Shown: one piece after another, positions 20,001 through 60,662 of the stretch | How the letters are laid out: each line of letters starts with the position of its first letter | Position numbering within the stretch: position 1 is the stretch's first letter | DNA from: Callorhinus ursinus | Lineage: Eukaryota > Chordata > Mammalia > Carnivora > Otariidae | Direction: 5' to 3' | Length of the DNA: 64,000 nt | Assembly (NCBI RefSeq): GCF_003265705.1 | Contig: NW_020313044.1 | Location: forward strand, 2,962,879-3,026,878 | Position numbers and translations under genes: made by a program | The notes under the pieces: model-generated | The model's input: only the letters and a program-made list of their open reading frames with translations | Told to the model about the DNA's origin: nothing | Database searches by the model: none

Positions 20001-21010
20001 GAAGTAAGTTCTGGGTTCAGGGAGGAGTAACAAAAGCTCTCAAACTGCTATTTCTTTTACTCCGGACGTGGGAGACCTCCACTCCCTGCTACAGAGATCT
20101 ACAGACTTCAGTGCTCTGTTTCTGATCACCTGCATTCCTGTGCAGCGCCCAACATCATGAAGAGGAGAGATGCAGTCAAACACATCCTGCCAGTAAGATG
20201 TCAGAGCCTGAACTTAAACGGCATTCAGCAGAAGTAAGTTACTCTATTTCATTGTCATCACAACCAACAGACCTAGTCAAATCTCTCAGAGACGGCCAAA
20301 AGGGGTGTCTGCTCCCCGGTTCCTGGAGGGTAAGAGAAGGCTGGGCTAACCGCTTAGCAAAGACAGGCAATCACGATGGAGAAAACACCCCGCGCCACAT
20401 GGAGGACGGAAAACAGTAGCAGAAAAGTCCAACTCTGCCTGCGCCAGCGGTGTGGATGAGCAGAACCCGGAGCCCAGGAGAGGAAGGAGGGGGCGGGGGG
20501 CCATCATTCCCTAGGAGAACTTGTCAGCGGAGGCCCTCACCACCTGGGAGTCTGCCCAGCTGCTCCTGCAGACCCCGGCCAGCCTGCGTGAGGCAGGCCC
20601 CTCGGAGCAGAGCGCGCAAGGCCTCCGAGTGTCCCTCCTGACTCACCGAGCCTCGGGCCAGCACCACCCGGACTTCTCCGTTTTTCCTGCCGCTCCTGGG
20701 CTATGATGGCAGCTTTCCAGCTCCACATGCCATACATCAGCCGCAGATCGCTGCTGGCACAGGCCAGCGCCTTCCCCCGCCCCCCACCCCTGGCACACTT
20801 TGAGCCTGATCCTCCTTCTCCCCAACCCCAACCCCCTCACCCACCCGTGCCAGGTGCCCGGCCCAGGGGCGGCCCCACCCCCCCAGCCCCCTCCCCTCCT
20901 CCCCCGCAGCCGGGCGCTGCCAGGCCTGGGCACCTGCAGCACCTCCCCGCCCCACCCCCATTCTCCACCACCTCGCCCCTCCCCCCTTTCTCTAGCAGAG
21001 GGAGGGGGCG

Positions 21011-21017
21011 ACTCACC
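21011..21017 (-). other. NRG2: 5' splice donor of NRG2 exon 1
   Basis: On the minus strand the exon ends TGC-G and the intron begins gtgagt (plus-strand actcac at 21011-21016). This is a near-perfect U1 match, placed where NRG2 homology ends: the sequence after LCTDC+G is low-complexity Gly/Pro/Arg translation with no family resemblance. Confidence 0.92.
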
Positions 21018-21707
21018 GCAGTCAGTGCACAGGATCTTGCCCACCTCTTTCTTGAGGTTTTTGCCGTTGGTGTCGATGGGGGCAAAGGCCGTCTTAAAGA
21101 CTAAGGGCTGCTCCGTGGGCTCCAGGAAAAAGATGTAGCGCTGGTTCCTTTCGAGCGGTGCACAGGAGCCCACGCTGATCACCTGCTCGCGCTGCAGCCC
21201 CCCGCTCCGGAGCGGCCACTTGTCCAGCACCTTCACCAGCGCCACCCGACCCGAGGCGGGCGGCTCGCGGGTGCTGTTGGAGCTGGAGCCGCCGGCTGGG
21301 GCCAGCCCCTGTACCTTGCCCTCCACCACCACCGGTGCCTTGTACGCCTGGTCCTGCACCGACTTGAGGCTAGGCGAGTAGCAGGCGAGCGACACACCGA
21401 AGAGCAGCATGGAGAAGCCGGGGGCCGGGTCGCGCCTCATGCCGCCGGCGGCTGCGGCTCGAGAGCGGGCGGCGGCTCTCCGGGCTGCGGGGCTGCGGGG
21501 CTGCGGCTGTTGCGGCGGCCGCGGCTCTGGGGGCGCAGCGGGACGGGAGATGCTGCCGCCGCTGCTGCCGCTGCTGCTCCTGCTGCCGCTGCTGCCGCTG
21601 CTGCTCCTCTCGCTGCTGCCGCCGCTGCTGCTGCTGTCGCTGTAGCTGCTGCACCGAGCCTTCTCCAGTGGCGGCGGCGGCAGCGCTGAGCAGCAAACCT
21701 GCCGCAT
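21017..21707 (-). CDS. NRG2: Neuregulin-2, first coding exon (230 codons plus 1 base)
   Basis: NRG2 is a membrane-anchored EGF-family growth factor precursor that signals through ErbB3/ErbB4. This exon encodes only the N-terminal part; the Ig-like, EGF and transmembrane parts lie in later exons outside the window. Seen in the translation: start MRQVCCSALPPPPLEK; a Ser/Gly-rich run at residues about 19-53; a Pro/Arg/Ala-rich stretch at 55-88; an internal hydrophobic segment at about 98-110 (FSMLLFGVSLACY) that is likely to act as the signal for secretion; an N-glycosylation site NST at 144-146; and an extracellular segment running to ILCTDC at residue 230. The last base, G, is phase 1 and is followed by a gtgagt donor, as expected for the known junction before the Ig-like domain. 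The start at 21707 is the first ATG in this frame and matches the family. The start context is weak (C at -3, C at +4). Methionines 90 and 100 are alternative starts, and Met90 has G at -3. The frame runs open upstream and past the donor, which reflects GC-rich DNA. Confidence 0.95.
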
Positions 21708-21720
21708 CTGGCCAGGCCAT
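21370..21720 (-). other. Out-of-frame overlapping ORF (116 codons) starting 13 nt upstream of the NRG2 ATG
   Basis: An ATG at 21720 (minus) precedes the NRG2 ATG by 13 nt in another frame and opens a 116-codon frame ending at a TAG at 21370-21372. It starts MAWPDAAG and then becomes very Gln/Arg-rich, because the AGC serine repeat of NRG2 is read as CAG in this frame. It has C at -3 and G at +4. If this ATG is in the mature 5'UTR it could reduce initiation at MRQVCC. Its length may be only a by-product of the repeat. No protein family is recognised. Confidence 0.3.
21551..21651 (-). repeat. Imperfect AGC/GGC trinucleotide repeat coding for the NRG2 Ser/Gly run
   Basis: On the plus strand this is a run of ctg, ccg and ctc triplets. 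In the NRG2 frame on the minus strand it reads mostly AGC (Ser) and GGC (Gly), with a few Arg and Glu codons. Triplet repeats of this kind change length easily between species. Confidence 0.85.
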
Positions 21721-23029
21721 TTGGGGGGCTCCGCCGCTCCGCCGCCGCCGCCTTGGGAGGGGAAACAGAGCCCGCTAGAAAACCGGAAACAGCGTAACGT
21801 TAGCGCCTCGGAGCCCTCCACCGGCAGCCGGGGGAGGCGGCCCAGCGAGGGCAGGGGGCAGGCGGCAAGCGGGCCGCGATGCGCAGCGCGGAGCGGCGCG
21901 GCGCTCCCACCCTGCGCGCCAGGACCTGGAGGAGGATGCGGAGAATAGGACGCCCGCCCACTTGCTCTCTCGCGCCCCCTCAACCCCAGGACCGAGCGAG
22001 GAGCGCGGCTTCTGCAGGGGAAGCTCGGGACTGCACTGCTTTAGCGCCCGATTTCGCGGCCCGCAGGGGCGCGGGAGGAAATCTTGCTACCTTTGCTCGT
22101 CCGATTTATGGGCAGGACAGTGGGACGGTGCGGGAGGAGAGGGCGGAGTAGAGAAAAGGGATTCTGGCACGGTCCTATGAACGTGAGAGTGGGTCACAGG
22201 GCGTGCCCCTGCCTTCGGCGGCGGACTGGAGCCGCCAGGGAGATTACCACGCTCGGTGTGGCGGGCCAGCAGCCTTCCTCCTCCTAGGTTGTCCCCTTCC
22301 CCCGGAGGACCCTAGAGGCCGGCCCCTAATGGAGCCCACGTGTTCGGCCCAGCCACCGCCTAGTGAGCTCTAGGGATTCGAACTGAGGTGGGGAAGGGTT
22401 CCGGTCCCGTCATTTTGGAAAGAGTTAGGGCTACGTACAGTCTTGTTTCGGCATTGAGGACACCTAACTAAGGTTGGTGGCTGGGAGAGGGTCCAGTCCC
22501 CAAGACTCTGGGCTTTCTGCAGCGGCCAGGCTGGACCAGGCTACACGCTGTGCGACCTCATCTTCCTTTAAAAAAGCTGTTCCCTAAGGGAAGTGGGGGC
22601 TTCTTGAGATCCAGAGCCTGTCAGGGCCAGAGGCTGCTCCATAGGAAATGGTGTCTTTTTTAAAAGTCTGGTCCTTGCAAGGGACAGGAGAGTTTGATCC
22701 ACTGGAGCCAACGTCTGAGTTTAAAAAAGCAAATCCACGATCCGTTCGCCTCCTATCAATAAGGATCTACGGAGTTTCCAATTCCCAGCTTATATCCTTG
22801 AAGGATGTGGAACTCAGGAATTCCACTCAGGTCTTGGAGAATTTTATCCCTGCCTGGGCCTCGCAGGAAATGGGCCCAGGGATGTCTGGCTCAGGCTTGG
22901 ACTGCTATTCTGGAAAGGAAGGACACAGCTAGCTAGACCTTTCCTGCTGGCTGTCTAAGAGCCACCTCAAACTTAACATATCCAAGGCCAATAACATTAT
23001 TTCTCCCACCCACTCCAAATTCCCTATAA

Positions 23030-24060: not shown

Positions 24061-24315
24061 CCATGAGGAAAGGAGGGAAGGAAGAAAAGAATCAAAAGTC
24101 ATCTCTCTTAAAGGCATCAGGCCAACCTTGTTGGCCCCTTCAATGTCCCCCTTTATGTTTTCATAGATCATGATCTCCTACATCACAGAACACCACTATG
24201 AGGAATATTGCTAACTTCACCCTCACATTTTCCCATGGAGCAAACAGTCCTAGGGAGGAAAAGGGACTTACTCAAGATCACACATGGCCAGGACTGTACT
24301 CAGTCTTCCATTTCT

Positions 24316-24438
24316 TTTTTTTTTTTTTTAAGATTTTATTTATTTATTTGACAGAGAGAGACAGAGCGGGAGAGGGAACACAAGCAGAGGTGGGGGGAGA
24401 AGCAGGCTTCCCGCCGAGCAGGGAGCCCGATGTGGGGC
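24316..24438 (-). mobile_element. 3' part of a CAN-SINE fused to the 3' end of U6
   Basis: The minus strand reads gccccacatcgggctccctg at the junction and continues through the CT-rich part to the A tail (plus-strand T run from 24316). The tRNA-like head is missing, replaced by U6. The 15-mer cagtcttccatttct (24301-24315) and cagtcttctatttct (24546-24560) flank the whole composite and not its parts, so U6 and the SINE part entered the genome together. Confidence 0.9.
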
Positions 24439-24545
24439 AAAAATATGGAGCGCTTCACAAATTTGCATGTCATCCTTGTGCAGGGGCCATGCTAATCTTC
24501 TCTGTATCGTTCCAGTTTTAGTATATGTGCTGCTGAAGCGAGTGC
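24439..24545 (-). pseudogene. U6 spliceosomal snRNA retro-pseudogene, full length
   Basis: The minus strand reads as U6 from nucleotide 1 (gcactcgcttcagcagcac) to the terminal atattttt, 107 nt, the length of U6. The ACAGAG and AGC core region (gatacagagaagattagc) is intact. There are scattered changes, for example at positions 2 and 3. The upstream side (higher coordinates) shows no TATA box at the -30 position, so it is not expected to be a working Pol III gene. Its 3' end is joined directly to a CAN-SINE fragment. Confidence 0.93.
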
Positions 24546-24616
24546 CAGTCTTCTATTTCTGACAACAGAGTAGTGGTAAAGAGCTTGTGCTCTGGGGTCA
24601 GGCGGAGCTGGGTTTC

Positions 24617-24832
24617 TTTCTTCCTTTTTTTTTTTTTTTTTAAAGATTTTATTTGTTTATTCGACAGGGAGAGACACAGCGAGAGAGGGAACACAAGCAG
24701 GGGGAGTGGGAGAGGGAGAAGCAGGCTTCCCGCCGAGCAGGGAGCCCGATGCGGGGCTCGATCCCAGGACCCTGGGATCATGACCTGAGCCGAAGAGAGA
24801 CACTTCACGACTGAGCCACCCAGGCACCCACA
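24617..24832 (-). mobile_element. CAN-SINE, antisense
   Basis: T17 tail, complete head gagccacccaggcaccc. TSD gagctgggtttc (24605-24616) repeated at 24833-24844. A separate insertion from the U6 chimera 56 bp away. Confidence 0.95.
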
Positions 24833-24844
24833 GAGCTGGGTTTC

Positions 24845-60161: not shown

Positions 60162-60354
60162 GGGATGCCTGGGTGGCTTAGTCAGTTAAGCGCCTGTCTC
60201 TGGCTCAGTTCCTGATCCCAGTGTCCTGAGATCAAGACCTGCATGGGGTTCCCCACTCAGCAGGGAGCCTGCTTCTCCCTCTGCCTGCCGCTCCCCCCGC
60301 TTGCACTCTCTCTCTCTTTCTCTGACAAATAAATAAATAAAATCTTTTTAAAAA
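60162..60354 (+). mobile_element. CAN-SINE, sense, inside L1M
   Basis: Head gggatgcctgggtggcttag. TSD aaagtatacaacgca-like on both sides, decayed. Confidence 0.94.
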
Positions 60355-60477
60355 GAAGTATACAATTCAATGGTATTAAGTACATTTATGATGTTGTGCA
60401 ACAATCAACATCATGCAATTTCAGAACTTTTTCATCATCACTAACAAAAATCTTGCACCCATTAAGCAGTCATTTCC

Positions 60478-60662
60478 TTTTTTATATATATTTTATTTAT
60501 TTGAGAGAGAGAGAGAGCAAGCACGAGTGGGGGTCAGAGGGAGAGAGAGAAACAGGTTCCCCGCTGAGCAGGGAGCCCGATGCAGGACTCGATCCCGGCA
60601 CCCTGGGATCACGACCTGAGCTGAACGCAGATGCTTAACTGACTGAGCCACCCAGGCACCCC
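60478..60662 (-). mobile_element. CAN-SINE, antisense, inside L1M
   Basis: From a T-rich left end to gagccacccaggcacccc. The target tcatttcctttttt is repeated at 60470 and 60663. Confidence 0.94.

What the first reader, a model, noticed from the sequence alone, without database searches (positions are those of the whole stretch)
24301..24560. U6 snRNA-CAN-SINE chimeric retrocopy with its own target-site duplication
Read on the minus strand, a full-length U6 copy (24545 to 24439) joins the 3' part of a CAN-SINE (24438 to 24316) with no spacer. A single 15-bp TSD, with one mismatch, brackets the pair exactly: it abuts U6 nucleotide 1 on one side and the A tail on the other. This fits LINE reverse transcriptase priming on a SINE tail and then switching template to U6 RNA. 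Such U6-LINE/SINE chimeras are known in other mammals; I do not know of a described U6/CAN-SINE one. It would be a marker for template switching in carnivores, and possibly the founder of a small family.
Basis: partly seen in the sequence, partly recalled or inferred. Interest (0 to 1): 0.75.

Follow-up and report, generated by a model that had tools for sequence, protein, structure and literature searches.

The report
U6 RNA–CAN-SINE fused retrocopy
In what looks like a carnivore genome, a copy of the splicing RNA U6 and the tail half of a common jumping element were pasted into one site together in a single event; this is a well-known kind of genomic accident, here with a partner that I did not find described.

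Summary
On the minus strand a U6 copy (24545–24439, Rfam 104.9 bits) runs straight into the 3' part of a CAN-SINE (24438–24316). One 15-bp target-site duplication with one mismatch abuts U6 on one side and the A-tail on the other. No exact duplication of 6 or more bases flanks either part alone, and no SINE head was found directly 5' of U6. So this is one LINE-1-type insertion of a U6–SINE hybrid. The SINE breaks inside its Pol III box B (GGATCGA|GCC). U6 ends in five T, like mature U6, with no overlap at the join. 'Founder of a family' is disfavoured: box A and most of box B are gone, and T5 at the junction is a Pol III terminator. The kind is known: U6/L1 is common, and Doucet 2015 reports U6 or U6atac chimeras with SINEs and counts repeat-linked U6 copies in four carnivores. 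No carnivore genome could be searched. The site lies about 3 kb upstream of an NRG2 coding match, handy for orthologue checks. Ordinary, cleanly preserved example.

The parts
24546..24560 (-). 5' target-site duplication copy, AGAAATAGAAGACTG, directly abutting U6 nt 1
24439..24545 (-). U6 snRNA copy, 107 nt, 8 differences from human U6 (recalled), 4 at CpG sites
   Evidence: cmscan RF00026 104.9 bits
24439..24443 (-). T5 at the 3' end of U6: matches the five-U end of mature U6 and would act as a Pol III terminator at the junction
   Evidence: mature U6 end UUUUU>p from a passage of PMC10415362
24330..24438 (-). 3' part of a CAN-SINE (109 nt): starts inside box B (GGATCGA|GCCCC), polypyrimidine stretch, AATAAA repeats, shortened terminator TCTT
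   Evidence: blastn and alignment with 21 full-length copies of the window
24316..24329 (-). A-tail, 14 A (a 15th A is counted in the TSD)
24301..24315 (-). 3' target-site duplication copy, AGAAATGGAAGACTG, one mismatch
24625..24829 (-). Separate, full-length neighbouring CAN-SINE with its own 14-bp TSD (24844–24831 and 24616–24603, one mismatch); not part of the chimera, closest relative of its SINE part in the window
   Evidence: element limits and TSD coordinates counted by eye

Best explanation
A single LINE-1-type target-primed insertion put a hybrid of U6 RNA and the 3' half of a CAN-SINE transcript into this site. Shown by the sequence: one TSD round the pair, same orientation, U6 with a five-T end fused without spacer to the SINE at a break inside box B, then AATAAA repeats and an A-tail. 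Inferred: the SINE A-tail primed on the nicked target; L1 machinery did the copying; and the two RNAs were joined either before copying (mature U6 with its 2',3'-cyclic phosphate ligated by RtcB to the 5'-OH end of a broken SINE RNA) or during copying (reverse transcriptase leaving the SINE template and jumping to the 3' end of U6). I lean slightly to ligation (about 50 to 42). The insert is most likely a dead pseudogene: no internal Pol III promoter and a terminator at its junction. The confidence given is for the single joint insertion, by either joining step.
For: U6 matched over the whole covariance model. TSD with one mismatch abutting both ends; no exact repeat of 6 or more bases within 15 nt of the borders of U6 alone or of the SINE part alone; 2 of 2000 random anchors as good. 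No CAN-SINE head match (E up to 1e-5) between 24546 and 24624, so U6 stands in place of the head and is not inserted into a SINE. The neighbouring SINE has its own, different TSD. Junction inside box B and zero shared letters there. T5 end, as in mature U6. U6/L1 chimeras share the anatomy: 98.3% sense, U6 typically full length, partner often 5'-truncated, usually no further propagation (PMC13174262 section 10).
Against: The nick site, bottom strand ATTTCT/GA, departs from the L1 consensus TTTT/AA. For ligation as the joining step: the box B break is not predicted to be exposed in the SINE RNA, with mean unpaired probability 0.28 at the junction against 0.48 over all positions, in the 18 of 21 copies where box B was recognised. 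Human U6 genes, as I recall them, can encode T5, so T5 does not prove a processed RNA end. Mismatched TSDs round a part alone were not scanned for (one search used exact repeats there). No orthologous site was seen, so simultaneity rests on the TSD and the missing head.
Confidence: 0.92

Rival explanations
1. Same single insertion, but joined specifically by template switching: L1 reverse transcriptase starts on the CAN-SINE A-tail, copies about 109 nt of body, leaves the RNA within box B and continues at the 3' end of U6. This is one branch of the best explanation, so the odds overlap with it.
For: Anatomy is that of template-switch chimeras as classed in Doucet 2015 (Group IV; passages). That paper says internal initiation was never observed for U6/L1 chimeras, and here too U6 begins at its very 3' end.
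Against: Nothing in the sequence separates it from ligation. Zero letters shared at the junction give no hint of annealing of the cDNA to U6.
Confidence: 0.42
2. The insertion is a retrocopy of an older genomic U6–SINE unit, i.e. one member of a small replicating family.
For: Not excluded: no carnivore genome could be searched. A Pol II read-through transcript could carry U6, SINE part and A-tail together.
Against: Box A and most of box B are missing and T5 would stop Pol III at the junction. The TSD abuts U6 nt 1, so a read-through transcript would have to begin, or be cut, exactly there. U6/L1 chimeras usually do not self-propagate (PMC13174262).
Confidence: 0.05
3. Two independent insertions, or a later deletion, brought U6 and the SINE part together.
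For: The window is dense in CAN-SINEs (21 full-length copies by my filter), so neighbours are common; a full-length SINE ends about 80 bp upstream of U6.
Against: No exact TSD round either part alone. A deletion would have to end exactly at the U6 3' end and inside the SINE, and still leave one matching TSD round the pair. The near SINE has a different TSD.
Confidence: 0.03

Closest known systems
U6/LINE-1 chimeric pseudogenes (Group IV of Doucet 2015; 180 human loci in Law and Burns 2026)
   Same: U6 complete, 5' of a 5'-truncated retrotransposon in the same orientation, TSD round the pair, A-tail
   Different: Partner is a Pol III SINE of carnivores, not L1
U6/Alu (cited), U6atac/Alu, U6/Mon-1 (platypus) and U6/AnolisSINE2 chimeras, as stated in Doucet 2015 (passages)
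   Same: snRNA fused to a SINE; of two U6atac/Alu cases one lies within a 14-base TSD
   Different: Alu is a T- SINE without its own polyadenylation signal (PMC9599045). Mon-1 and AnolisSINE2 are believed to be moved by L2; almost all platypus U6-L2 chimeras have truncated U6, and most have short TSDs. Here the partner is a T+ SINE with AATAAA and a Pol III terminator rudiment, and the TSD is 15 bp
Repeat-associated U6 copies of dog (26), cat (17), ferret (11), panda (5) in Doucet 2015 Table 2
   Same: Carnivore U6 copies linked to a retrotransposon
   Different: The partner is not named in the parts that I read and supplements could not be opened; CAN-SINE may already be among them. The study's filter was 97.5% identity; this copy, with 8 differences in 107 from recalled human U6, would fall below it
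Full-length CAN-SINEs of the same window
   Same: 3' body, AATAAA repeats, terminator or its rudiment, A-tail
   Different: They keep the tRNA-Lys-like head with boxes A and B; here U6 takes its place

Membership tests
snRNA/retrotransposon chimeric pseudogene (Group IV) | snRNA directly fused to a non-LTR retrotransposon | tested here: met
   U6 24545–24439 then SINE from 24438, no spacer
snRNA/retrotransposon chimeric pseudogene (Group IV) | one TSD round the pair, none round a part | tested here: met
   15 bp, 1 mismatch round the pair; no exact repeat of 6 or more round either part
snRNA/retrotransposon chimeric pseudogene (Group IV) | U6 complete, 5' of and in the same sense as a 5'-truncated partner | tested here: met
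   nt 2 and 3 of U6 differ from the recalled human sequence
snRNA/retrotransposon chimeric pseudogene (Group IV) | L1 endonuclease site | tested here: inconclusive
   bottom strand TTCT/GA, degenerate against TTTT/AA
snRNA/retrotransposon chimeric pseudogene (Group IV) | both parts present or absent together in related species | not testable with these tools
   no mammalian genome collection offered; the genome search 'own' did not complete six times
CAN-SINE | tRNA-Lys-derived head with boxes A and B | tested here: not met
   head absent; box B cut after GGATCGA
CAN-SINE | polypyrimidine tract, AATAAA repeats, terminator or its rudiment, A-tail | tested here: met
   present, terminator reduced to TCTT; features as described in passages of PMC9599045
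Self-replicating chimera (new SINE) | usable internal Pol III promoter and no terminator before the tail | tested here: not met
   box A gone, box B cut, T5 at the junction
Self-replicating chimera (new SINE) | several copies with the same junction | tested here: inconclusive
   one U6 match at gathering level in 64 kb; only microbial and viral collections could be scanned
Functional U6 gene | TATA box at about -30 upstream | tested here: not met
   no TATA string in -45 to -10; the proximal sequence element was not tested

The most novel reading that the evidence does not exclude
CAN-SINE transcripts are recurrently broken inside the T-loop/box B of their tRNA-like head, and the freed 3' halves are joined to mature U6 by RtcB, so that carnivore genomes hold many U6/CAN-SINE chimeras with clustered junctions that record RNA cleavage sites of a Pol III SINE.
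Probability: 0.08. Interest if true: 0.5.

Novelty: new member of a known kind. Interest (0 to 1): 0.2.

Why it matters
On its own it is one more fossil of LINE-mediated RNA recombination, with a clean TSD. Its use is as a seed. Doucet 2015 (passage) says that U6/Alu chimeras were not reproduced experimentally and may be rare because of how Alu inserts. A carnivore census with this junction could show whether SINEs with their own AATAAA signal form U6 chimeras more readily than Alu does, and whether SINE break points cluster, which would speak for ligation over template switching.

Tried and rejected
A longer degenerate junction pattern in genome contigs gave 1 hit, in a Bacteroidetes MAG. BLAST of the 230-base chimera against all 121 fetched stretches gave, in the first 1500 characters of output that I printed, at best a 20-base match, E 0.001: chance. 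One U6 and one CAN-SINE pattern had 0 matches in viral contigs. No match in phages or plasmids. These are not carnivore collections, so they say nothing about copy number.

T-loop exposure: I tested whether the SINE break lies in an exposed part of the SINE RNA. It does not look so (0.28 unpaired at the junction against 0.48 overall; 18 copies scored, 3 of 21 dropped because box B was not recognised). I keep the T-loop idea only as the novel case.

Two-insertion and deletion readings: rejected on the TSD and the missing SINE head. Functional U6 gene: rejected for want of a TATA box.

Of these, (20 of 50 papers listed; 4 of 4; 20 of 88; 15 of 21; 15 of 58,030; 8 of 8; 10 of 19) bear on U6 and SINE chimeras; no listed title or abstract start named a U6/CAN-SINE one. 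In PMC6230240 and PMC12458276 the words 'snrna' and 'chimer' do not occur, and 'chimer' does not occur in PMC13197249 (term counts and passages). This covers open-licence papers and these terms only. Moldovan 2019 and Buzdin 2003 and Garcia-Perez 2007 are not held; I know them from other papers' words and reference lists and from memory.

Full report
What is there. Read on the minus strand the locus is: flank, AGAAATAGAAGACTG (24560–24546), a 107-nt U6 copy (24545–24439), 109 nt of the 3' part of a CAN-SINE (24438–24330), 14 A (24329–24316), AGAAATGGAAGACTG (24315–24301), flank. The U6 part matches RF00026 over the whole model, 104.9 bits, and is the only gathering-level Rfam match in 64 kb. 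A permissive scan (E up to 1) added 10 weaker matches, none to U6.

Is it more than chance. The TSD's 3' copy is the only other place in the window, both strands, within 2 mismatches of the 5' copy. Of 3000 random 15-mers, 2 had a partner with at most one mismatch 200–280 bases downstream. An anchored TSD finder gave 13 for the chimera; 2 of 2000 random anchors reached 13 (best 18). Of the 21 full-length CAN-SINEs of my filter it reported some TSD for 15, none for 6, and 9 reached 13. The TSD abuts U6 nt 1 on one side and the A-tail on the other, so it belongs to the pair. No exact repeat of six or more bases was found within 15 nt of the borders of U6 alone or of the SINE part alone; mismatched ones were not scanned for.

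One event or two. A U6 copy dropped into a full SINE would leave the SINE head 5' of U6; no head match (E up to 1e-5) lies between 24546 and 24624. A SINE dropped next to U6 would carry its own TSD; none is seen. The closest SINE, 24829–24625, ends about 80 bp upstream of U6, has its own 14-bp TSD and is a separate insertion. I therefore take the pair as one insertion.

The junction. The SINE part starts at GCCCC, which in full-length copies follows GGATCGA or a close variant. That is about position 75 of 190 in the neighbouring copy as cut (the cut may include one or two flanking bases), inside box B of the Pol III promoter. PMC9599045 (passages) describes the Can family as a tRNA-Lys-like head, polypyrimidine motif, AATAAA repeats, terminator TCTTT or a rudiment, and A-tail, polyadenylated after Pol III transcription (T+). 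The chimera keeps all but the head, with a terminator shortened to TCTT. U6 ends in T5. Mature U6 is stated to end in five uridines with a 2',3'-cyclic phosphate, after four genome-encoded uridines (PMC10415362 passage). No letter is shared between U6 and SINE at the join.

How it was made. Two models are in print for U6/LINE-1: RNA ligation by RtcB before reverse transcription, and template switching during it (PMC13174262 passages and section 10; PMC13247085 passages). Both predict U6 with its 3' end at the junction, same-sense orientation and a 5'-truncated partner, as seen here. The five-U end and the blunt join fit the ligation of mature U6 slightly better; a poorly exposed break site in predicted SINE folds is against it. 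I put ligation at about 0.50 and template switching at about 0.42. The nick, ATTTCT/GA on the bottom strand, is a degenerate L1 endonuclease site at best.

Can it replicate. Box A and most of box B are missing, U6 promoter elements lie outside the RNA (established knowledge) and no TATA string lies at -45 to -10, and T5 would stop Pol III at the junction. Law and Burns report that U6/LINE-1 chimeras usually do not self-propagate. A family is therefore unlikely, but copy number could not be tested.

Age. U6 differs from human U6 (recalled) at 8 of 107 positions, 4 at CpG sites; the SINE part is 89.1% identical to its nearest copy in the window; the TSD has one transition. No date is claimed and equal age of the parts was not formally tested.

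Setting. The stop-to-stop frame 22040–20643 on the minus strand carries a Pfam NRG2 N-terminal match (residues 231–324, 100.1 bits), i.e. about 21350–21069. The chimera thus lies about 3 kb upstream of that coding stretch, on the same strand. That this is the first coding exon of NRG2 is inferred from the domain. No effect on NRG2 is implied.

What is known. Doucet 2015 (PMC4476161: passages, outline and section 9) classes such loci as Group IV, cites U6/Alu, reports two U6atac/Alu cases (one with a TSD), and describes U6 chimeras with Mon-1 and AnolisSINE2. Its Table 2 counts repeat-linked U6 copies in dog 26, cat 17, ferret 11 and panda 5. The partners are not named in what I read. The listings, several of them capped, showed no paper on U6/CAN-SINE chimeras. 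So this is a new member of a known kind, with a partner that I did not find named.

Limits. No carnivore genome was reachable. The naming of the SINE as CAN-SINE and of the host as a carnivore rests on recalled sequence features and agreement with PMC9599045's description, not on a database match. The host species is unknown to me.

Noticed in passing
20643-22040 (-): A 465-residue stop-to-stop frame carries the NRG2 N-terminal Pfam domain (100.1 bits, residues 231–324); the window probably holds the first coding exon of NRG2.
   Followed up: partly
24603-24844: Full-length CAN-SINE (24829–24625, minus) ending about 80 bp upstream of the chimera's U6, same orientation, own 14-bp TSD with one mismatch, 89.1% identical to the chimera's SINE part.
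   Followed up: yes
whole window: High CAN-SINE density: 21 full-length copies by my filter in 64 kb, by eye of at least two sequence types (GAGTCCC with CTCTCATGTGCTC, and GAGCCCC with TGCTTGTGTTCCC); the chimera's SINE part is of the second type.
   Followed up: partly
60163-60661: Two CAN-SINEs in opposite orientation about 120 bp apart overlap a weak miRNA-precursor-like Rfam match (MIR7533, 45.7 bits, cut-off 230): probably a SINE inverted repeat, not a miRNA.
   Followed up: no
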